Notes under the pieces: generated by a model | Database searches by the model: none | Told to the model about the DNA's origin: nothing | Seen by the model: only the letters and a program-made list of their open reading frames with translations | Assembly (NCBI RefSeq): GCF_002835465.1 | Contig: NZ_PIZM01000001.1 | Coordinates: forward strand, 558,001 to 622,000 | Origin: Psychromonas sp. psych-6C06 | GTDB lineage: Bacteria; Pseudomonadota; Gammaproteobacteria; Enterobacterales; Psychromonadaceae | DNA length: 64,000 nt | Direction: 5' to 3' | Translations under genes and position numbers: made by a program | Shown: positions 43,411-54,154 of the stretch, piece by piece | Position numbering within the stretch: position 1 is the first letter of the stretch | How the letters are laid out: each line of letters opens with the position of its first letter

Positions 43411-44058
43411 ATGTATAATAAAAGAAAGTATCTTAGTGAAGCATTTATTAAACGCTATTCAATACCTATAGGCATTGTAGGTTTAGCACTTACAACTATG
43501 TCTACATTCGGCGTATCTATGGAGGGGACTTTCAATGCTTCAAATTTCTGGGCTATGGTGTGGCTTTTCGTCGCATTAATAATACTTGTCATAATTGCGC
43601 TAGATTTAGCACTCAAGGATCTAAACGTCTTTGTAAATTCAAAGTTCAATATTGGTGAATTACCACCTGTATTGAGTATTGCAGGGATTAATGACGACGA
43701 AAATGCGAAAATCATTCTTCACCCAAATAAAGATATATCAATTCAAAAAGATGCCGTAGTAACAATAATACTATGTGACGAAAAACAAGGTGATATTGAG
43801 TTTGGTTTAGGAGTTATTACAGATCTACAGGCTGACGGAAAAATTGCTTTAGTAGCAACACCGAAAAGAGCATTAGAGAAACAATGGAGACTTGTTCTTG
43901 AAAATACAGGTAATTATGCGAGTAAATTGAGAGTTAGAACTATAGTAGACAGAAACTATGTTAATGATGATTATTTGTATAAAGAAAATTATGAAATTGG
44001 CAATTTAAGTAAATCGGCAAATGTTTTGAGTCATGATGGGACAGGAGTAAAGCTATGA
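43411..44058 (+). CDS. Two-membrane-helix protein of unknown function in the PT island
   Basis: A 215-residue protein with two hydrophobic segments (about residues 15-34 and 46-68), then a beta-rich soluble domain of ~145 residues (AKIILHPNKDISIQKDAVVTIILCD, GKIALVATPKRALEKQW, LRVRTIVDRNYV). I do not recognise the family. GAGG lies upstream, it starts 13 bp after dptH, and its stop overlaps the next start (ATGA), so it belongs to the dpt operon. The 2TM + beta-domain layout resembles membrane effectors of other phage-defence systems, but that is only an analogy. Confidence 0.75.
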   Translation: MYNKRKYLSEAFIKRYSIPIGIVGLALTTMSTFGVSMEGTFNASNFWAMVWLFVALIILVIIALDLALKDLNVFVNSKFNIGELPPVLSIAGINDDENAKIILHPNKDISIQKDAVVTIILCDEKQGDIEFGLGVITDLQADGKIALVATPKRALEKQWRLVLENTGNYASKLRVRTIVDRNYVNDDYLYKENYEIGNLSKSANVLSHDGTGVKL

Positions 44059-45104
44059 GTAACTATAACTACATTCAGTTTACTCAGCCAGCGGGGGTAT
44101 TTTATATGCTGAGCTTACCTGCTAAATTCGTTACTAAAATAATGGTCGTAAACGAACGAGATGAAGACGGGAGTGGGATGCAAAGAGGGGACTCTAAACC
44201 AAGGATTGATGAAATAAAGAGTTATTGTAATGATCCTGATGCTACATTCCCAACCCCCGTAATAATGGCAATTGATTCAGAAAATTTGACATTTAACAAA
44301 GATAATACAGTTACAATAGCTGATGAAGCAGGAATAGCTGATGTTTTAGATGGGCAACACAGGCTGAAAGGTCTTAGAGCATCAAATAATATTGATGCAT
44401 TTGAATTACCGGTAGTATTTGTAAAAGATGCAACAGAAGAACAAAAAGCTTATATATTTTCTATTATTAATAGTAAGCAAACTAGAGTATCACCCTCTCT
44501 AATTTATGATTTATTCGCGGTCATGAAAAAGAGAAGCCCTCAAAAAACATGTCATGAAATTGCTCGCAGCTTGAATAAAATGGAATCATCACCATTTTTC
44601 GGGCGTTTGAAAATGTTGGGAAAAGGTGGAGGGGAAAATGCCTCATTGTCACAAGGAACATTTGTGAAAAGGCTTGTTACTCTAATCACTAAGAAACCAG
44701 ATGATTATCTGATAAAAATAAAAAATGATGAAGAACTTCCGATAGAAGATCTACCTTTCAATGAGTATTTCCGAGAAAATAAGGATGACGTAATTTTCAA
44801 AGTGGTCTTGAATTTATTTTCAGCTGTAAGGCATGAGTTTAGAGATGAATGGGGCAACCCGAGTGAATCAATCCTTTCGAAAGGTATAGGTTTTGGGGCT
44901 ATTATAAGAGCATTTCCAGCTATCTTTAAGAAAGGTAAATCAAAAGGAGATCTTTCTGAAAGTTACTTCCGTGAAGTGTTCGCTAATTTCAAAACTGTTC
45001 TAAGTGAGGAGAATATTAGCCTGACATCGGAACACTTTGGCTCAAATGAAGCGAATGTTACACAGTTACACAAACTCATTGAAAAAGGGCTATTAAGGGT
45101 GTGA
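44055..45104 (+). CDS. DGQHR-domain protein, second copy in the island
   Basis: A 349-residue protein with the hallmark VLDGQHRLKGL (Asp99-Arg103) of the DGQHR family, to which DndB also belongs, but otherwise unlike the DndB of this island. Similar DG(Q/H)HR signatures occur in ParB/sulfiredoxin-fold proteins, so nucleotide or DNA binding is plausible. It overlaps the 2TM gene by 4 bp and is the last gene of the dptFGH operon. DndB is a transcriptional regulator in Salmonella; whether this copy regulates, senses PT DNA, or works with the 2TM protein is unknown. Confidence 0.85.
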   Translation: MSNYNYIQFTQPAGVFYMLSLPAKFVTKIMVVNERDEDGSGMQRGDSKPRIDEIKSYCNDPDATFPTPVIMAIDSENLTFNKDNTVTIADEAGIADVLDGQHRLKGLRASNNIDAFELPVVFVKDATEEQKAYIFSIINSKQTRVSPSLIYDLFAVMKKRSPQKTCHEIARSLNKMESSPFFGRLKMLGKGGGENASLSQGTFVKRLVTLITKKPDDYLIKIKNDEELPIEDLPFNEYFRENKDDVIFKVVLNLFSAVRHEFRDEWGNPSESILSKGIGFGAIIRAFPAIFKKGKSKGDLSESYFREVFANFKTVLSEENISLTSEHFGSNEANVTQLHKLIEKGLLRV

Positions 45105-45200: not shown

Positions 45201-45542
45201 TTAATCTCTTTTATTATAAAAACTAATCCCACGATTCAAATGCAACTTAACAAAATCTCCAAACTGCACACCTCCTAGGTGTGCAGTTTGTTTTTGATAC
45301 GCTTCACGCAGCACGGCTAAATAAACATCGGCATATTCACCGGCAAACACTTTCCAGCTCATTTCCACGTTGCTGTCTGATGGAATATCTTCAACAGGGG
45401 GGATTGAATCTTCAGCGAGCGACATACAAAGTGCCCACCGACAAAGTACATTCCAGTTTTCGATTCCTGTTTTACGTTTTAAGGTGGTTAGTTGTTGCTT
45501 TTGCTTTTCAGAAAGGCGAATAGTATCAATTGTATGTTCCAT
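45201..45542 (-). CDS. dndE: DNA sulfur modification protein DndE
   Basis: A 113-residue small helical protein with the DndE pattern: DTIRLSEKQKQQLTTLKRKTGI at the start and FGDFVKLHLNRGI near the end. DndE binds nicked DNA as an oligomer and is needed for phosphorothioate insertion with DndC and DndD. Its ATG shares a base with the dndD stop (TAATG) and AAGGGG lies upstream. The 3' part contains a perfect 14-bp inverted repeat, see the terminator at 45260. It is the last gene of dndBCDE. Confidence 0.93.
   Translation of the reverse strand: MEHTIDTIRLSEKQKQQLTTLKRKTGIENWNVLCRWALCMSLAEDSIPPVEDIPSDSNVEMSWKVFAGEYADVYLAVLREAYQKQTAHLGGVQFGDFVKLHLNRGISFYNKRD
45260..45296 (+). terminator. Strong plus-strand terminator-like hairpin inside dndE
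   Basis: CAAACTGCACACCT (45260-45273) is perfectly complementary to AGGTGTGCAGTTTG (45277-45290) with a three-base loop, and TTTTTG follows on the plus strand. A 14-bp perfect stem with T-tract is as strong a terminator as any in the window, yet it lies within the dndE reading frame (coding QTAHLGGVQ). It would stop plus-strand transcription coming from the dpt operon; dndE itself is read the other way. Confidence 0.7.
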
Positions 45543-47497
45543 TAAAAGTACCCCTTTGTGAACGCTGAGCTTTGTTGTTGTTCGTTATATTGAATGTGGT
45601 ATTCACGGCAAATAGCTGGACTGAGTTGCTTATAATACTGTCCGTTTATCTCTTCATCCGTTGATAACAAGATCACTTGCTGACTCGCATTTGGGAAGTA
45701 GTTGTTAATCAACTTATTACGGTGTTTACCATCTAAACGACCTAATGGTGTATCAATCACTGTTGGGATCTCTTTACCTGATGCTTCTGCTAATCCCCAT
45801 AAAACAGCAATCGCCAATAATTGTCGCTCACCTGCTGATAAACGGCTTGGTGACATCGCTTGGTTTTTATTATCAAGCAGGGTTAGTTCAAAGCTAGTAG
45901 GACAAACTGTTATACCATTTATGAGTTTTTCTTTACGCGATAACGCATGAAACTTTTCACTGATATGAGATTGAAGGTACTCAACGTTTTCAGCCACTAA
46001 CTTTTCAGCAAAGCTTTGCATTGTGTTTTTAAGCTTGCCAATATGCTCTGCAACTTGTCCTGCACGTTTCTGCTCAAAGGTATCTTTACTTTGTTGTGTC
46101 AGTAGATTTGAGTAACGTTGATTCAACACATCTAACTTGGCTATTGCCTGATCTAATAAGACTTCTTTTTGCTTCTTAATAGTTTGTGTATTTTTGAACA
46201 TCGCTTCATGTTCAGCAAGCTCATTTAACAGATGTTGTACGGTTTCATAATCAGGCACACTTTCTAGCTTTTTATCAAATAAGGCCTGTGCTTCTAATAA
46301 CTCTGCTCGCTCTTCTGCAAACTGTTGTCGCTCAATGGCATCGTTTGCTAATTTGTCATCTAGCCCATTAAATATCGCAATATCTGAATGAAGGTAACAC
46401 TCTGTACCAACCACTTTTTGGCGTTCATTCGCCAGTGCTTGCATGGTTTCTGCTACTTTGGCAAAGGCTTTTTGATCAACACCAGCTTCTGTGAGTGACG
46501 TTTTTATAGTTTGCTCATACTCATAAATAGCACTCTCGATCACTTTTGCCTGCGTGGCTTTTTGTTCAAGGTTAATCTGTTTTTTAGTTTGCTTGATTAA
46601 CTTTGAGACTAACGAAAGTGGTCCACAACCAGCATCTAATTTTACGCGATTGTGTTGATTGGTTTTTAATTTTTGCTCAATGGCCCCAAGTTCAAATTTA
46701 ATGCTATCGCGCTCTTCGATTAAATGTGCACCTGCATTACGTACTTTTTGACGAGATTTATTAATGCTGAGATTATATTGACTTGCTTGTTGTTCAAGAT
46801 TGGCAAGATCGGTACGTAGATCATGCACCACGATGCCTTGCTCGCCAATTTCGGCTTCACAGAGACTCACTTTTTGCATGACACTGTCATCAAGGTTTGC
46901 GCTTTTACGTTTTCGCTCTACATTGCCTAAATCTATTTGCAATTGGCTAAGTAGATCTAAGCCTAATAGATTTTCAATGCCTGTACGGATAAGTTCAGAG
47001 CTTCTGTCTGGGTGTGCTAAGTTTTCAATTTTTTCACCATCAAAGAAAAACAGATCTGATAATGAAAGGGGAATAAACTCATTCACGAATTCATCCCAGT
47101 ATTGGCTTAAATGGCGATCTTCTTCACCATCACAGAACACTTTAACTTTATCGCGGGTTTCCACAGCAACTTTCCAGTAACGCACGACTTTAAACTCTTT
47201 TGTCTCAGTATCTGATGAGTGAGTAAAAGTAATTGATAATTCTACTTTTTCATTAGCCTCGGCATAACGATTTTTAGTATTAGCTAAATAGGTGCTAAAG
47301 GCCTCTACGCCACGGTTTGAGCATTTAGCATGTTTACCATATAAAACGAGTTGCAGTGCATCTAAGAAGGTCGTCTTACCTCCACCGTTTAAGCCACCAA
47401 ACAATATAACAGGTTTAGTTTTAGTGACGCTTAAATCGATTTCATGAAAACCTTTATAGATACCAAAATTTTCAATGGTGAGCTGTTTAATAATCAT
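45542..47497 (-). CDS. dndD: DNA sulfur modification protein DndD (SMC-like ATPase)
   Basis: A 651-residue Rad50/SMC-like ATPase: Walker A FGGLNGGGKTTFLDALQL (about 35-52), two long coiled-coil arms around the middle, and the signature/Walker B region SPSRLSAGERQLLAIAVLW then TVIDTPLGRLD. DndD is thought to prepare or nick DNA for sulfur insertion by DndC. Start 47497 is chosen because GAGGAG lies 7 bp upstream and MIIKQLTIENFG is the family start; it overlaps the dndC end by 11 bp. It shares its stop with the dndE start. Confidence 0.95.
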   Translation of the reverse strand: MIIKQLTIENFGIYKGFHEIDLSVTKTKPVILFGGLNGGGKTTFLDALQLVLYGKHAKCSNRGVEAFSTYLANTKNRYAEANEKVELSITFTHSSDTETKEFKVVRYWKVAVETRDKVKVFCDGEEDRHLSQYWDEFVNEFIPLSLSDLFFFDGEKIENLAHPDRSSELIRTGIENLLGLDLLSQLQIDLGNVERKRKSANLDDSVMQKVSLCEAEIGEQGIVVHDLRTDLANLEQQASQYNLSINKSRQKVRNAGAHLIEERDSIKFELGAIEQKLKTNQHNRVKLDAGCGPLSLVSKLIKQTKKQINLEQKATQAKVIESAIYEYEQTIKTSLTEAGVDQKAFAKVAETMQALANERQKVVGTECYLHSDIAIFNGLDDKLANDAIERQQFAEERAELLEAQALFDKKLESVPDYETVQHLLNELAEHEAMFKNTQTIKKQKEVLLDQAIAKLDVLNQRYSNLLTQQSKDTFEQKRAGQVAEHIGKLKNTMQSFAEKLVAENVEYLQSHISEKFHALSRKEKLINGITVCPTSFELTLLDNKNQAMSPSRLSAGERQLLAIAVLWGLAEASGKEIPTVIDTPLGRLDGKHRNKLINNYFPNASQQVILLSTDEEINGQYYKQLSPAICREYHIQYNEQQQSSAFTKGYF

Positions 47498-49145
47498 CGG
47501 TTGACTCCTCAGTCTCAATAATTAAGGAGCTATAGCCTTGTTCTTTAATAGATCTTGTTACCATTATAATTTTTTCTTCAATTGCTCTCTTATCTTCTTC
47601 ATCGAGATTAGGAGAGTTATTTAAATGTATTTGTAAACGATGGCGCTCGCGCTCTAAGGCAAATTGCTTTGCTTCAAACAAGCTATTAAATGCACCTTTA
47701 TCTAAGCTTTTGTTTAATTCTTCTGATAAATTTGCACGACGCAGTTGATTACGGTGCTTATTGGCAATCGACATCACAGAGCGCATTTGTTGGTAAAGCA
47801 GGCCATCTTCATCACCTTGCTCTTTACAGTGTTGCTTTAACTTATCAAGCACGTCCAAATTTAAAATAGGGTGATGCGCGCGTTGTTTACCCGGGTAGCT
47901 TTGTTTAATTGCTTGCTCATAAATGCGAGGTACGCTGTCTTCCGCTTCATGTTTATCTTCTAGCCAAATACGGCGGATCTCTTCTAAATCTTCTATCGTT
48001 AATAGCTCTATGTCTTTGACTTCTTCTGGCCCTAATTGTTGCACTGCAACTTGCGCTTCTAAAACCTTAGCTAACAGGTGTTCACGAAACGATTGAATGT
48101 AAGGTCCTGGTACTAAATCTGCACCATGCTTTGAAACATGCACGGTTAAATTGCCTTTCATTCGTCTAAAGTCTCGATTGGCTTTATCCCGCTTTAGCTT
48201 TTCTATTTTTTTATGGCGGTTGGCATCATTGACTTCAATTTCATTTCGCAGTGCAACCAATGGATACATCCACTCTTTTTCTTCATCATTGGCTATCATG
48301 GCATTCATGGATTTATCTTCAGATACCATAGTACAAACGTAACAACCAAAGCGGCTATCGCCACAACTTTGCGTGCTTTTATCAACTACTAAAGGGCATT
48401 CACCACCTTCAGTTGCGCCTTGATACATGCCCATTAAATCATGGTTTGGAAAACCCCAAGGATTTTTAATACTGTTGAGATAGACCCACACATCATCATT
48501 AGTCCAACTTGCAATAGGCGTATAAACCCAAACACGTTCGAGAGAGTCATTTTCAGTTAAACCTTGTGCTTTACGAGTATTAGTTTCAGAACTCTCAAAA
48601 CGCTCCATACTCGCTGCACGTGCAGTGCTTTCTGCTTTACGTGTACCTAACACTAAAATAGCTTCGCCACTTTTGTTGGCCATATTTTGGATGAAGGTAT
48701 TCGAAGGTGATATTTTCAGGCGATCTGTACACCAACGAAATTTGTAACGTGGGGCAGGGTAACCTTTACCAATTAGATTAACCCAAAATCGGTCTTTGAC
48801 TGCAGGGGTTAATCTGTGTGGGGTAATCGGTAAACCTTGCTCATCAGCTTGTTCTTTCATTTTACTTAAAGATTTACCTACCCACATTGCAACGATGGGG
48901 TTTTCAACCAGAGTATCGGTACTGATAACATGTACTTTTTTCTTACACGCGCCTTCTTCTTTTAACTCTTGTAAGGCATACCAGATAAGTTGCAAAATTG
49001 CAGTTGAATCTTTACCGCCACTGTAACCAATTACCCATGGTATCTGATCACTTTTATAAAGTGTTTTTACGTGATCAATAGAATCTCTGATCGTTTCTTT
49101 CAAGCCTACTTTCGTAAATGCAGATTGGTTTTTTGTGCTAGACAT
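47487..49145 (-). CDS. dndC: DNA sulfur modification protein DndC (PAPS-reductase-like)
   Basis: A 552-residue protein of the PP-loop/PAPS reductase fold. The ATP pyrophosphatase loop SGGKDS is at about residues 42-47, and a Cys cluster CGDSRFGCYVC supplies ligands for the [4Fe-4S] cluster that DndA loads. DndC, with DndD and DndE, puts sulfur in the DNA backbone. Start 49145 (after AAGGGCAAG) overlaps the dndB stop by 8 bp; a longer ORF to 49190 is not supported. Length is close to known DndC proteins. Confidence 0.95.
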   Translation of the reverse strand: MSSTKNQSAFTKVGLKETIRDSIDHVKTLYKSDQIPWVIGYSGGKDSTAILQLIWYALQELKEEGACKKKVHVISTDTLVENPIVAMWVGKSLSKMKEQADEQGLPITPHRLTPAVKDRFWVNLIGKGYPAPRYKFRWCTDRLKISPSNTFIQNMANKSGEAILVLGTRKAESTARAASMERFESSETNTRKAQGLTENDSLERVWVYTPIASWTNDDVWVYLNSIKNPWGFPNHDLMGMYQGATEGGECPLVVDKSTQSCGDSRFGCYVCTMVSEDKSMNAMIANDEEKEWMYPLVALRNEIEVNDANRHKKIEKLKRDKANRDFRRMKGNLTVHVSKHGADLVPGPYIQSFREHLLAKVLEAQVAVQQLGPEEVKDIELLTIEDLEEIRRIWLEDKHEAEDSVPRIYEQAIKQSYPGKQRAHHPILNLDVLDKLKQHCKEQGDEDGLLYQQMRSVMSIANKHRNQLRRANLSEELNKSLDKGAFNSLFEAKQFALERERHRLQIHLNNSPNLDEEDKRAIEEKIIMVTRSIKEQGYSSLIIETEESTDDY

Positions 49146-50229
49146 TTCTTGCCCTTTGTAATTTTTCTTCGTCGGCTTGTTCTTTTTCATTAAGCGGTAT
49201 TTCGAGATAATGCTTTATTTTATTGGCTGTTAGCTTTGCTGATTGGGAATTATTATTCATACCACCATTCACTACACATCGACTCTCCCAGTCTGCCTGG
49301 TTAGATTTATCCCAATTAATTTGTTTTAACCTTATTAATGTTTGCTTCCAATTTTTATCATTTTTCAATAAATATGAACCGACGATACCGAGGGCTTGAA
49401 AAGTAACTGAATGAGCATGAATGCCCTCTTCTCTTAGTTCTTTGCTCGAAACTTCATCTCGGCATACTAATAACCAAGCTGGCATGTTCTTAATTACTTC
49501 TTCCCAGTATTCAGATGCAATTGGAATTAGGCTCTGATAATTATCTTTATCGATTTTGCCAACTAACTGCTTTGTTGCTTTATTTACAGCACTATGGCTG
49601 ATTAATTTTTTGGATCGAGAGCCTAAGTTGCTTTTTTCCATATGCACAAGTTTCGATAGGTTTTTACTTTGATATATGATTGTTTTTGACAAAATAGCAT
49701 GAGGCTTATCGTCGTAAGTAATGCTTAATGAAGTATCTGTTTTAACAGGGTATAGATTTAGATCTTTAAATATTCGCTGCCTCTCTGCAAGGGTTTTATT
49801 TGCAAAAAAAACAATAGATATAGTTTCATTTGCTAATGAAGGATCCTCTTTTAATGCTTCTAATATTGCAGCATTTCGATGTTGACCATCAGTGATATAG
49901 ATTTCTGCATCTTCATCAATTAAAAGAGTACCAATTTTTTGTTCGTGTTTAGATTCGCCTATGCCAATGAATTCACTTTTACCATCGATACAAGCAGTTA
50001 ATGCAGAAAACACATAACCATAGCGGTTATCTAAGATGTAGTTAGTAATTTCAGGAATTCGATCTTCATTAATAACACGTTGCGCTCGTTTCTCTACAGG
50101 CAATATGCTTTCATCTAAAGTAAAAACTTTCATTAACCTTTTTAGAGGGCACATAACCGTGTAATATTCATTACCAGCCTGAGTACCTTTAATTGCAGGA
50201 AACGAAGTACCCGATACTATTGTTTGCAT
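49138..50229 (-). CDS. dndB: DNA sulfur modification regulator DndB
   Basis: A 363-residue DGQHR-family protein, first gene of dndBCDE. The motif YITDGQHRNAAI is at about 111-122 (DGQHR 114-118). In Salmonella, DndB is reported to repress the operon by binding TACG-N10-CGTA sites, with a Cys near residue 29 important; Cys27 in VMCPLKR here is the likely equivalent. Start 50229 is preferred, with GAGG 8 bp upstream and FPAIKGTQAGNEYY as family N-terminus. The divergent gap to dndA contains a large inverted repeat that is a natural operator. Confidence 0.9.
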   Translation of the reverse strand: MQTIVSGTSFPAIKGTQAGNEYYTVMCPLKRLMKVFTLDESILPVEKRAQRVINEDRIPEITNYILDNRYGYVFSALTACIDGKSEFIGIGESKHEQKIGTLLIDEDAEIYITDGQHRNAAILEALKEDPSLANETISIVFFANKTLAERQRIFKDLNLYPVKTDTSLSITYDDKPHAILSKTIIYQSKNLSKLVHMEKSNLGSRSKKLISHSAVNKATKQLVGKIDKDNYQSLIPIASEYWEEVIKNMPAWLLVCRDEVSSKELREEGIHAHSVTFQALGIVGSYLLKNDKNWKQTLIRLKQINWDKSNQADWESRCVVNGGMNNNSQSAKLTANKIKHYLEIPLNEKEQADEEKLQRARNV

Positions 50230-50258
50230 ACTTAAAACCTCAAAATACTTATCATCCA

Positions 50259-50310
50259 TGTTCTTACGAAATATATGCTTGTTCGTAAGAACAAGAGTGC
50301 GTAATGTACG
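50259..50310. promoter_or_regulatory. Putative operator in the dndB-dndA divergent region
   Basis: A perfect 12-bp inverted repeat TGTTCTTACGAA (50259-50270) / TTCGTAAGAACA (50282-50293), 11-bp spacer. It contains TACG (50265-50268) and CGTA (50284-50287), spaced 15 bp rather than the 10 bp reported for Salmonella DndB. Three copies of GTTC/GAAC (50260, 50281, 50289) fall inside it. A further CGTA-ATG-TACG (50300-50310) follows. It lies between the dndB start and dndA start and could control both. Confidence 0.7.
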
Positions 50311-50358
50311 TGACATGACGTTAAATGTCTTTATTTATTTCTCATTTTGGAGCAATTC

Positions 50359-51483
50359 ATGCCTGTTTATTTAGATTGCAACGCAACAACTCAAGTTGAC
50401 CAAGAGGTTGCTGATTTAGTGTTCAAATTAATGCGTGAAGAATATGGCAATGCGGGTAGCAGAACTCATGCATTTGGGGCAAGTGCTAAGAAGTACGTCG
50501 AACAGGCAAGAACTCAAGTTGCAGCTGTGACAGATGATGATAAATCTACTGTGATATTTACCAGCGGTGCAACTGAAAGCAATAACATTGCTTTGTTAGG
50601 CTTAGAAAACTACGCCAAAAAGCAAAACAAAAAACACATTATTACCACTGAAATTGAGCATAAGTCTGTATTAGAGCCGATCCAAGAGTTACAAAAACGT
50701 GGCTTTGAAGTGACTTATCTTCCTGCTAATGCAGATGGATTAATTGATGCTGTTACTTTAAAAAATGCGTTAAGAGATGACACGTTTTTAGTTTCCATTA
50801 TGCATATCAATAATGAAACTGGCTCTATTCAACCTATCGGTGAATTCTGCTCTGCTTTAGAAGGTCACGATGCCTATTTTCATGTTGATGCAGCGCAGAG
50901 CTTTGGTAAGTACAGTGAAGTGTTAAAAAACGAACGAATCGATTTAATTAGTGCGAGTGGTCATAAATTATATGCGCCAAAAGGCATTGGGGCATTAATT
51001 CAGCGTAAACGTGGTTTTATTAAAGTACCACTTAAGCCCATTCTATTTGGTGGTGGGCAAGAGCGTAGTTTACGACCTGGAACACTTGCGGTTCCGTTAA
51101 TTGCTGGTTTTGGTTTAGCCTGTGAACTAGCGGTAAAAAACAGTCCGAACCGCTTGGAAAATGCTAAAAATCTAAAAGTTGAAGTGTTGGATTTCTTAGC
51201 AAAATATGATGCAGAAATTAACGGTCAAAACACTTCAGATTATGTTGTTAACTTCTCTATACCTGAAGTTAATTCTGAAGCCGCTATTGTGATGTTTAAA
51301 GATGTTGTTGCTGTTTCAAATGGCTCTGCCTGTACTTCTAATAGCTATACACCAAGTCATGTTTTAGTTTCTATGGGGTTAAATGAGAACCGCATCAATG
51401 GTGCAATACGAATGTCTTGGAGCCATCAAACAGAAGCGATACCATTCATTCAACTATCTGAAAAAATTGAGCAATTGCTATGA
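50359..51483 (+). CDS. dndA: Cysteine desulfurase DndA
   Basis: A 374-residue PLP-dependent desulfurase of the NifS/IscS class. The start MPVYLDCNATTQ, the PLP Lys in SASGHKLYAPKG, and the catalytic Cys in SNGSACTSNSYTPSHVL are all present. DndA takes sulfur from cysteine and activates DndC. ATG 50359 is preferred with GGAG 6 bp upstream. It diverges from dndB and overlaps the Mrr-type nuclease gene by 4 bp (ATGA). Many dnd clusters use a housekeeping IscS instead; here a dedicated enzyme is kept. Confidence 0.93.
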   Translation: MPVYLDCNATTQVDQEVADLVFKLMREEYGNAGSRTHAFGASAKKYVEQARTQVAAVTDDDKSTVIFTSGATESNNIALLGLENYAKKQNKKHIITTEIEHKSVLEPIQELQKRGFEVTYLPANADGLIDAVTLKNALRDDTFLVSIMHINNETGSIQPIGEFCSALEGHDAYFHVDAAQSFGKYSEVLKNERIDLISASGHKLYAPKGIGALIQRKRGFIKVPLKPILFGGGQERSLRPGTLAVPLIAGFGLACELAVKNSPNRLENAKNLKVEVLDFLAKYDAEINGQNTSDYVVNFSIPEVNSEAAIVMFKDVVAVSNGSACTSNSYTPSHVLVSMGLNENRINGAIRMSWSHQTEAIPFIQLSEKIEQLL

Positions 51484-52262
51484 GTAAAAAGCTAACTATT
51501 GTTGAAGCCGCTGTTGAAGCGTTGCACTTAATTGGTGTGCCTGCTTCTGTTAACCAGACTTATGCCAAGATAATGGAAAGACAACTCTATAAATTTGGTG
51601 CGAAAGATCCTATTGCCGTCTTACGTATACAAATGGAGCGCCACAGTGATGCTTCTGCATGGTGCTCTCAGGCTAAAGTTAAAGTATTAACTAAAGACGA
51701 TGATGGGAAATTTAGCCCTCTAGATATGACTAAAAAGAAAGCAAAAAAAGAGGATAAGCCAACTGACAATTTATCTATGGTGAATGAGTTAGCAAACAAA
51801 CTAAAGCAAGATACTATTTTAAGAATCGTTGATCATTTGTATGCACTTGATCCTGATGAGTTTGAATCATTCTGTCGTCGTTTTCTAGATCGCTATGGCT
51901 TTGATGATATGGAAGTTACCAAACGTGGTCGTGATGGTGGTATCGATGTATTTGGTACTTTAGAAGTGGGTATATCCCAGCTTCATGTTGCTGCACAATG
52001 TAAGCGTTACAAGAAAAGTAATAAAGTATCTCGGCCTGATATTGACCAATTTAGAGGGGCGATACAAGGTGAATTTCAGCAGGGCATATTCATAACAACA
52101 AGCTCTTTCACCAAAGAAGCAAAAGATAATGCGTTTAAACGTGGCTGTGTGCCAATTGTTTTAATTGATGGTGAAACGCTAGCTGAGATCATGATTGATA
52201 GAGGGATTGGCGTTTCGGTTAAAAATATTCCAATCTATGATTTTGAGATTGATTTGGTTTAA
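51480..52262 (+). CDS. Mrr-type restriction endonuclease with HARE-HTH-like N-terminus
   Basis: A 260-residue protein. Residues 1-82 fit a HARE-HTH-like winged helix (TIVEAAVEALHLIGVPASVNQTYAKIMERQLYK). After a Lys-rich linker, residues 115-250 form an Mrr_cat nuclease: Glu128 (FESFC), GRDGGIDVFG (Asp156), and AAQCKRY (Gln173-Lys175). Mrr enzymes cut modified DNA; HARE-HTH modules are linked to sensing DNA modification. It is co-translated with dndA (4-bp overlap), so it is part of the phosphorothioate system rather than a bystander: it may cut foreign modified DNA or respond to faulty PT marking. Target unknown. Confidence 0.87.
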   Translation: MSKKLTIVEAAVEALHLIGVPASVNQTYAKIMERQLYKFGAKDPIAVLRIQMERHSDASAWCSQAKVKVLTKDDDGKFSPLDMTKKKAKKEDKPTDNLSMVNELANKLKQDTILRIVDHLYALDPDEFESFCRRFLDRYGFDDMEVTKRGRDGGIDVFGTLEVGISQLHVAAQCKRYKKSNKVSRPDIDQFRGAIQGEFQQGIFITTSSFTKEAKDNAFKRGCVPIVLIDGETLAEIMIDRGIGVSVKNIPIYDFEIDLV

Positions 52263-52269
52263 TACTATC

Positions 52270-52294
52270 GGTTACATCGTTCGGATATGTAACC
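52270..52294. terminator. Hairpin at the converging ends of the Mrr gene and the methyltransferase relic
   Basis: GGTTACAT/ATGTAACC (52270-52277/52287-52294), 8 bp perfect with a 9-nt loop, without a T-run. It overlaps the 3' end of the minus-strand relic. Confidence 0.45.
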
Positions 52295-53267
52295 CACATA
52301 CTTTTTTATTTAATTGTACTAGTTGTGCCTCAAATTCATTTCTTGCCATTATTACATCCTCATTCAAATTAAATCCTAATAACTTACCTAAACGTTTATC
52401 AAAGCTCACCTGTTTTTTGTAGTTAGTAAATCTTTCATCTATATAAGCACCTTTGTTAAGCAGTGGTGGTCTTCTGTTTTCATTGATGTAATCAAAGAAG
52501 TCGATATCTTTATCGGCCATTTTTATTTTGATACGTTCTTTTAGGAAGGGTAATGCTTTGTTTTCAAAGTCGTCATAACCTGTGAGGGTTACTTTGCCTG
52601 AGGTGATGTGGATTTTAACTAAATCGATATCGTCGTCTATTTCACCGTACATTTGTAATGCCGCATCGACATAAATCCGTAATAGCAGTGGTAATTCGCC
52701 TGAGAAATGCTTGTGCAGTAATAGCGAGTGGCCTTTGTTTAAAACGCTTGCTGGTAGGCTTTGGTGTGCTTTGATACATTGCTGTTCAATCAACTCAACA
52801 TCAGAGATAGCAAACAGTAAATCGGTTGCTAGGTTTAGCGCTGTTTTGTATTCGCCAAACAGCGCTTTGATATCGCGTTTTAAGTTTTCTGGTTGTTGGG
52901 TGTAGGGTTTACGTTTTTCAAATAGGCTCATGGCAAAGTAGGCTAAAAGATCCTCTTGGCGTTTCCTCTGCGCCTGTTCAAATTCAGCCGTATCATATAA
53001 CTCTTCAAGCAGTGAGAAGGTCTTTTTGAACGAACCCGTTAATGCTTTAACCTTTTCTGCTTGTATAAACTCTTCATTCGCTGGCACACGCCCAAGCTGT
53101 AAACAGCTTTGCCAAAAGTCGTTATATAGTTCTTGATTCCGGGTAATAAGCAGTTTGGCTTTGTTTTTATTTAAGAGTCGTGAATCAACTGGCTCTGGCG
53201 CGGTGAGTTGTTTCCGGCTGTTATGTCGCTTATATCTGCTTTGTAGGTAATTTTGCTCTGGAGTAGC
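52272..53267 (-). pseudogene. PT-associated putative methyltransferase, 5'-truncated
   Basis: The C-terminal part resembles the DNA phosphorothioation-associated putative methyltransferase family: RIYVDAALQMYGEIDD, LVKIHITSGKVTLTGYDDF, then LPFLKERIKIKMADKDIDFFDY. The reading frame is open upstream of the GTG at 53087 to the exact edge of the transposase element at 53268 (adding RKQLTAPEP, ITRNQELYNDFWQSCLQLGR), where it meets a stop made by the element's end. About 330 codons remain of a family of 500 or more; the N-terminal methyltransferase part is missing and not found beyond the element. It was therefore cut by the insertion. Confidence 0.72.
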
Positions 53268-54152
53268 AAGGGGTCATGATTTGATCCAATAGCTTTTTCT
53301 ACTATCTTTAGCTTTTAAAGGCTAAGTTAAAAGGAAACCGCGATGCCTCGGCCATTACGATTGGAATATGAAAATCCCTGTTTTCATGTTATGAATCGTG
53401 GCCGTGATAGAAAGAGGTTTTTTATGATGGTAGTTGTTATCTGGCATTTATAGAGTCATTAAAAGAAGCACATGAGAGATTTGGTTTGGTGAGCCACGCT
53501 GTTTGTCTTATGCCCAATCACTATCATCTTTTAGTTCAAAGCCCCAGAGCGAATTTAAGTCGTTGCATGCGACACATCAACGGCGTTTATACTCAAAGGT
53601 TTAATCGATTAGGTAAAACCGATGGCCCTTTGTTTCGTGGACGTTATAAAGCTCTGATTATGGATGTCGATAACTACTTTCTTCAAGTGTTCCGTTATAT
53701 ACATCGTAATCCCATCGATTGCGCTATCCCTTTAGTTGACCAATTAGATACATTTAAATGGTCAAGCTTTCCAGCTTATGTAGTCAAGGATATTTTTGTT
53801 GAATGGTTGCAACGGGATTTTACGTTAGCGCAGTTTGACGATAAGTGGCAACGGTATAACCATTTTGTGCATAATGACACCAGTCATGAAGTAAAAGATA
53901 TTTTAGATAAAACAAGATGGCCTGCCATTTTAGGTTCTCAATGTTGTGTTGAGCAGAAAAATTCTGTCACAGTCAATCATATTAATAAATTACAAAATAG
54001 TTTACCGGATATTGAAACTGTAATAGCAATCGCCTTTAATATGGGTCATGTAAGCGGTATCAATCAGTTAATAAATAAGTTGAAGGCTCGTTTAGATTCA
54101 AATAACGAATTAAAAGAAAAATTAAAGTTATTAACTCAAATCTTGACCCCTT
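53268..54152 (+). mobile_element. Y1/RAYT-type transposase element, degenerate copy
   Basis: Left end AAGGGGTCATGATTTGATCC (53268 on) and right end TCTTGACCCCTT (54141-54152) are mirror images. It encodes a broken transposase and is an internally deleted relative of the element at 56089. Inserted in the methyltransferase gene. Two more right-end copies follow (TGACCCCTTAAGACC near 54160 and TCTTGACCCCTT at 54183-54194). Confidence 0.8.
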
Positions 54153-54154
54153 AA
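53343..54154 (+). pseudogene. Y1-type transposase, frameshifted and internally deleted
   Basis: Compared with the intact copy at 56163, one base is missing after codon ~24 (the run AGAGAATTTTTT has become AGAGGTTTTTT), giving a stop at the first TAG. Later, about 50 codons of the C-terminal DNA-binding part have been lost, leaving ETVIA joined to IAFNMGHVSG. The HUH core MPNHYHLLVQ and RYIHRNP remain readable downstream of the frameshift. It should not be active. Confidence 0.9.

What the first reader, a model, noticed from the sequence alone, without database searches (positions are those of the whole stretch)
50259..50310. Operator between dndB and dndA carries PT-type motifs in both arms
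Seen: a perfect 12-bp inverted repeat with TACG/CGTA half-sites and three GTTC/GAAC motifs in 34 bp. Known: GAAC/GTTC is the PT context in Salmonella and some E. coli, and Salmonella DndB binds TACG-N10-CGTA. Here the half-sites are 15 bp apart. Inference: DndB (or the second DGQHR protein) controls both directions, and sulfur marking of the operator could provide feedback on the system.
Basis: partly seen in the sequence, partly recalled or inferred. Interest (0 to 1): 0.75.

Follow-up and report, generated by a model that had tools for sequence, protein, structure and literature searches.

The report
Conserved dndB operator, not sulfur-feedback site
The repeat is a real, conserved pair of repressor-type DNA sites just behind the dndB promoter, probably bound by DndB to restrain its own DNA-sulfur-marking operon, but the predicted sulfur-marking motif here is GGCC, which the site lacks, so sulfur feedback on it is unlikely.

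Summary
The 12-bp perfect inverted repeat (50259-50270 / 50282-50293) is real, unlikely by chance (3 of 20,000 shuffles of the gap) and conserved. Ten further dndA-dndB gaps, with DndB 46-71% identical and from five genera other than the window's, carry at the same place a palindrome TGTTCGTACGAACA (O1) and a second site or half-site (O2) 19-22 bp nearer dndB. O1 starts 8-13 bp behind a conserved dndB promoter. Most likely DndB dimers bind O1 and O2 and repress dndBCDE. The second DGQHR gene is missing beside dnd in most relatives that keep the operator, so it is a poorer candidate. Control of dndA is unproven.

Sulfur feedback is not supported. DndC carries the loop RYK (relatives RYK/RMK/RHK), the published signature for GGCC modification; GAAC/GTTC needs TRS. 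No GGCC lies within 1.6 kb. Two relatives keep the palindrome with no GAAC/GTTC in it (TGTTTGTACAAACA, TGTACGTACGTACA), and three relatives with the TRS loop have none in their dndB promoters. The tetramers are simply part of the operator sequence. New variant of a known kind; modest interest.

The parts
50280..50293 (-). O1, main operator: TGTTCTTACGAACA in dndB orientation (one change from the perfect palindrome TGTTCGTACGAACA); extends to the 18-mer CTTGTTCTTACGAACAAG at 50278-50295
   Evidence: conserved palindrome at the same place in 10 relatives
50259..50272 (-). O2, second site 21 bp further towards dndB: ATTTCGTAAGAACA in dndB orientation; same element in L068 (AATTCGTAAGAACA), full mirrored 12-mer in L067, half-site ACGAAC in the others
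50326..50331 (-). -35 of the dndB promoter (AAGACA)
   Evidence: -35 [ACG]AGAC[AT], 17 bp, -10 TA...T at this place in all 11 gaps
50303..50308 (-). -10 of the dndB promoter (TACATT; TAGAAT in most relatives); start of transcription inferred near 50296
   Evidence: start site inferred
49138..50229 (-). dndB, true start at ATG 50229 (363 aa); TIGR03233 DndB, DGQHR domain; likely binder of O1/O2
47487..49190 (-). dndC, sulfurtransferase
48732..48764 (-). DndC specificity loop GYPAP-RYK-FRW (residues 143-153 of the ORF): signature published for GGCC modification
   Evidence: PMC12193691
45542..47518 (-). dndD
45201..45542 (-). dndE
   Evidence: TIGR03184
50359..51483 (+). dndA, cysteine desulfurase, divergent from dndB
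   Evidence: TIGR03235
50310..50339 (+). weak candidate dndA promoter (GTGACA, 18 bp, TTTATT), overlapping the dndB promoter; unproven
   Evidence: one search finds no promoter at its stricter threshold
51480..52262 (+). Mrr-like nuclease, overlapping the end of dndA
44055..45104 (+). second DGQHR protein (the rival regulator)
   Evidence: missing beside dnd in most relatives

Best explanation
The repeat is a double operator for autorepression of dndBCDE. A DndB dimer binds the 14-bp palindrome O1 (50280-50293), which lies about +4 to +17 of the dndB transcript; a second dimer, or the second half of the assembly, binds O2 (50259-50272) about two helical turns further on. Together they block start or early elongation of dndBCDE transcription, so DndB holds down the amount of DndCDE and hence of sulfur marking. 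The GTTC/GAAC tetramers are bases of the operator, not sulfur sites. Shown by sequence: anatomy, conservation, single-locus occurrence, promoter placement, GGCC-type DndC loop. Inferred: that DndB is the binder, that binding represses, the dimer geometry, and that the sulfur motif is GGCC.
For: Eleven dndA-dndB gaps (window plus ten, six genera in all, DndB of the ten 46-71% identical) hold the palindrome 8-13 bp behind a conserved -35/17/-10 and O2 19-22 bp further. A matrix made without the window ranks 50280 first in 64 kb, and only 2 of 5,000 gap shuffles score as high. GTTCKTACGAAC occurs once in the 3.72-Mb genome; with two mismatches the genome has fewer sites than the reversed control pattern. 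In 109 genomes of one genus the GTTCGTACGAAC form followed by the half-site occurs only at dndB, in exactly the four genomes with DndB above 65% identity. Salmonella DndB, a homodimer, represses dndBCDE from two palindromes (PMC4507180); a Cys in the CPL motif is invariant in the alignment (C27 here) and probably corresponds to the Cys29 that matters there. Two relatives keep the palindrome symmetry while losing both tetramers.
Against: No binding, expression or start-site data exist for this clade. The operator differs from the Salmonella box, so homology of DndB does not prove recognition. The predicted DndB fold matches solved structures only weakly (ParB-like PadC and sulfiredoxin, E about 0.6-0.8) and shows no tested DNA-binding surface. 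The promoter scan with strict thresholds finds no promoter in the window gap. DndE or an unlinked regulator is not excluded.
Confidence: 0.72

Rival explanations
1. One reading: GAAC/GTTC in the operator is sulfur-modified by DndCDE, and the mark changes DndB binding, giving feedback from the modification to its own genes.
For: Three tetramers in 34 bp, kept in O1 of 9 of 11 gaps. Loss of sulfur marking raises dndB expression in S. lividans (PMC6186775). PT at GTTC strengthens TorR binding in vitro (PMC9239176).
Against: DndC loop RYK is the GGCC signature, not TRS; no GGCC within 1.6 kb; L067 (61% DndB, same RYK loop) and L059 have no GAAC/GTTC in O1; three relatives with the TRS loop have none in the 150 bp before dndB. 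In Salmonella the in vivo effect on torCAD came from DndCDE proteins, not from PT.
Confidence: 0.05
2. The repeat acts in RNA: a hairpin in the dndB leader that affects mRNA stability, translation or termination.
For: The leader folds well (-14.1 kcal/mol for 44 nt, z -6.0); L067 also folds well (-11.7) with changed bases. A weak terminator-like site is called at 50295-50278.
Against: In five of the seven relatives compared the long stem is not kept (6-9 of 12 positions) and the L062 leader folds at only -5.7 kcal/mol, while O1 stays a palindrome without loop, including its central TAC, as DNA recognition by a dimer would require. No T-run follows O1 in relatives.
Confidence: 0.1
3. Another protein binds the operator: DndE (described as ribbon-helix-helix), the second DGQHR protein, or an unlinked host regulator.
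For: DndE is conserved in all loci compared and its fold class often represses transcription (fold class from PMC10853773; the rest is general knowledge). The second DGQHR protein shares the DGQHR domain with DndB.
Against: The second DGQHR gene is found beside dnd only in the window and L061. The site is unique in the genome, unlike that of a global regulator. Direct precedent exists only for DndB.
Confidence: 0.13

Closest known systems
DndB operators of Salmonella enterica Cerro 87 (BB1/BB2, TACG-N10-CGTA; PMC4507180)
   Same: Two palindromic sites at the dndB promoter of a dndBCDE operon, proposed binder DndB, CG-containing half-sites, autorepression (inferred here).
   Different: Sequence TGTTCGTACGAACA with centre CGTACG; sites 21 bp apart and behind the inferred start, whereas the Salmonella footprints lie at -72 to +4; dndA divergent; TACG-N10-CGTA absent from the dndB upstream regions scanned in this clade.
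dndB control region of Streptomyces lividans (R repeat and GGCC sulfur sites; PMC6186775)
   Same: Inverted repeat near the dndB -10, dndA nearby, GGCC-type DndC loop.
   Different: The R repeat acts positively there; sulfur sites lie at -343 and +329, whereas the nearest GGCC here are 1.6 kb or more away.
TorR boxes with GTTC in Salmonella (PMC9239176)
   Same: A regulator site whose bases happen to include the GAAC/GTTC tetramer.
   Different: There the host modifies GAAC/GTTC; here the predicted motif is GGCC.

Membership tests
DndB protein family (TIGR03233) | Curated model score above cut-off over the whole length | tested here: met
   498.9 bits against 328, residues 7-356
Salmonella-type DndB operator | Palindrome TACG-N10-CGTA in the dndB promoter | tested here: not met
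   None in the 150 bp upstream of dndB in the window or in the six clade members scanned for it; TACG/CGTA in the window are 15 bp apart
Autoregulatory operator of dndBCDE | Conserved palindrome at a fixed place next to the dndB promoter | tested here: met
   11 of 11 gaps
Autoregulatory operator of dndBCDE | Bound by DndB and repressing | not testable with these tools
   Needs EMSA, footprint and a dndB deletion
PT-sensitive (sulfur feedback) operator | Operator contains the PT motif of the host's own DndCDE | tested here: not met
   Predicted motif GGCC from the RYK loop; no GGCC in the gap or within 1.6 kb. Prediction, not mapping
PT-sensitive (sulfur feedback) operator | Tetramers kept in the operators of relatives | tested here: not met
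   Kept in O1 of 9 of 11 gaps, but absent from O1 of L067 and L059 while symmetry is kept
RNA hairpin element in the dndB leader | Stem conserved across relatives | tested here: not met
   12/12, 12/12 and 11/12 in window, L067, L068; 6-9 of 12 elsewhere

The most novel reading that the evidence does not exclude
The published loop code fails here, DndCDE does modify GAAC/GTTC (or binds these tetramers unmodified), and the operator is read differently when marked, so the system senses its own sulfur level at its own promoter.
Probability: 0.05. Interest if true: 0.75.

Novelty: new variant of a known kind. Interest (0 to 1): 0.33.

Why it matters
It defines an operator class for dnd systems with the GGCC-type DndC loop and divergent dndA, distinct from the footprinted Salmonella DndB box. 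The natural variants (GTTC, GTTT, GTAC arms) give ready-made probes to test what DndB recognises and whether sulfur marking has any part in dnd regulation. It also removes a tempting but probably false example of sulfur feedback.

Tried and rejected
Salmonella box with changed spacing: rejected, the conserved unit is a different palindrome. Sulfur feedback: see rivals. Second DGQHR protein as regulator: missing beside dnd in most relatives. A shared operator at the dndFGH operon: no further site with up to 3 mismatches in the window except 3039 inside another gene. Tetramer depletion as a sign of the sulfur motif: GAAC, GATC and GGCC are all near 0.8 of expectation in the window, so uninformative. 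No relatives in viral contigs and no DNA match in E. coli genomes. Fold search of the DndB model: only weak ParB/sulfiredoxin matches, no solved relative by sequence. Twelve pattern hits in the genus of the Pseudoalteromonas loci are one repeated string GTTCTTACGAACTGC..., not the dndB form; its gene was not examined.

Full report
What was checked. In shuffles of the 129-bp dndA-dndB gap that keep dinucleotide content, 3 of 20,000 hold any such repeat. Three GAAC/GTTC tetramers in the gap are by themselves not unusual (P = 0.087). The dndB frame is open up to 50316, but relatives start at the equivalent of ATG 50229, so the repeat is in non-coding DNA.

Comparison with relatives. Close DndB relatives were sought in genome collections. 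Ten loci with divergent dndA and DndB 46-71% identical were compared with the window: L034, L033, L064, L065, L060, L061, L062, L067, L068 and L059. They come from five genera other than the window's (g12, g87, g388, g88, g400 in the tool's numbering); L064 and L065 are nearly identical. In all, a palindrome sits at the same place: TGTTCGTACGAACA in most, AGTTCGTACGAACA in L034, TGTTTGTACAAACA in L067, TGTACGTACGTACA in L059. The window has TGTTCTTACGAACA, one change from the perfect form. A second element follows 19-22 bp nearer to dndB: a mirrored 12-mer in the window and L067, nearly so in L068, and a half-site ACGAAC in the others; L034 has this half-site twice, 19 bp apart.

Promoter context. 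In all 11 gaps a -35 of the form [ACG]AGAC[AT], a 17-bp spacer and a -10 of the form TA...T lie 8-13 bp before O1. In the window these are AAGACA (50331-50326) and TACATT (50308-50303). The transcript start is therefore inferred near 50296 and O1 at about +4 to +17, a place where a bound protein can block transcription. A strict promoter scan does not call this promoter; the evidence is its conservation. For dndA only weak promoter candidates were found, overlapping the dndB promoter, so control of dndA is open.

Specificity. A matrix built without the window ranks 50280 first in the 64 kb; 2 of 5,000 gap shuffles score as high. GTTCKTACGAAC occurs once in the 3.72-Mb genome, and sites with up to two mismatches are fewer than for the reversed control pattern. 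In 109 genomes of one genus the GTTCGTACGAAC form with the half-site occurs only at dndB and only in the four genomes with a close DndB. This is a dedicated operator, not the site of a global regulator.

Who binds it. Salmonella DndB is a homodimer that represses dndBCDE through two palindromic boxes (PMC4507180). Its operator TACG-N10-CGTA is not found in the clade members scanned, so the kind of regulation is shared but not the sequence. The second DGQHR gene stands beside dnd only in the window and L061. DndB is the best candidate; direct proof is lacking.

The sulfur question. [quoted passage not shown]). The window has GYPAP-RYK-FRW and all ten compared relatives have RYK, RMK or RHK, so GGCC is predicted. 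No GGCC lies in any of the gaps, and the nearest in the window is 1,608 bp away. L067, with the same RYK loop, has no GAAC/GTTC in its whole gap, and L059 has none in O1, yet both keep a perfect palindrome. Conversely, three relatives with the TRS loop (L004, L005, L007) have no GAAC/GTTC in the 150 bp before dndB. Tetramers and sulfur motif are thus uncoupled in both directions. The limit of this argument is that the loop code rests on one study and no sulfur map of this strain was available.

Alternatives. An RNA hairpin is possible for the window and L067, which fold well, but the long stem is not kept in most relatives while the loop-free palindrome is. DndE or an unlinked regulator cannot be excluded. 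In S. lividans the loss of sulfur marking raises dndB expression, and double mutation of sites at -343 and +329 does the same; comparable GGCC sites are absent near the window's operator.

Verdict. A real and conserved operator, probably for DndB autorepression, of a sequence type not described in the papers read here. The sulfur-feedback reading is improbable.

Noticed in passing
52272-53087 (-) and 53486-54154 (+): A gene matching only the C-terminal half of TIGR04096 (DNA phosphorothioation-associated putative methyltransferase; profile 215-474 of 478), with an IS200-like transposase gene beside it; the N-terminal half was not found in 4 kb.
   Followed up: partly
L062 and L063 (Pseudoalteromonas luteoviolacea HI1, one contig): Two copies of the dnd locus about 1.15 Mb apart on one contig with the same operator and identical dndB upstream DNA.
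   Followed up: no
48679-52032: No GGCC between 48678 and 52033, around dndB-dndA, where about four would be expected; GGCC is the predicted sulfur motif.
   Followed up: partly
51480-52262: An Mrr-like nuclease gene overlapping the end of dndA, present in several but not all relatives.
   Followed up: no
43411-44058: A 215-aa protein without Pfam, PADLOC or NCBIfam match between dndH and the second DGQHR gene; found again in L061.
   Followed up: no
L036, L037, L003 upstream of dndB: More distant dndB promoters carry other ACGT-centred palindromes (ATTTTACGTAAAAT in L036, AGTTACGTAACT in L037) or repeated ACGTTA/TAACGT (L003), suggesting that dndB operators change with the DndB clade.
   Followed up: partly
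L042-L046, L048, L050-L052, L055, L056, L058: A near-identical string GTTCTTACGAACTGC(A/G)TCTTCACCTTCAAGAAC in 12 genomes of the genus of the Pseudoalteromonas loci, probably a conserved coding stretch.
   Followed up: no
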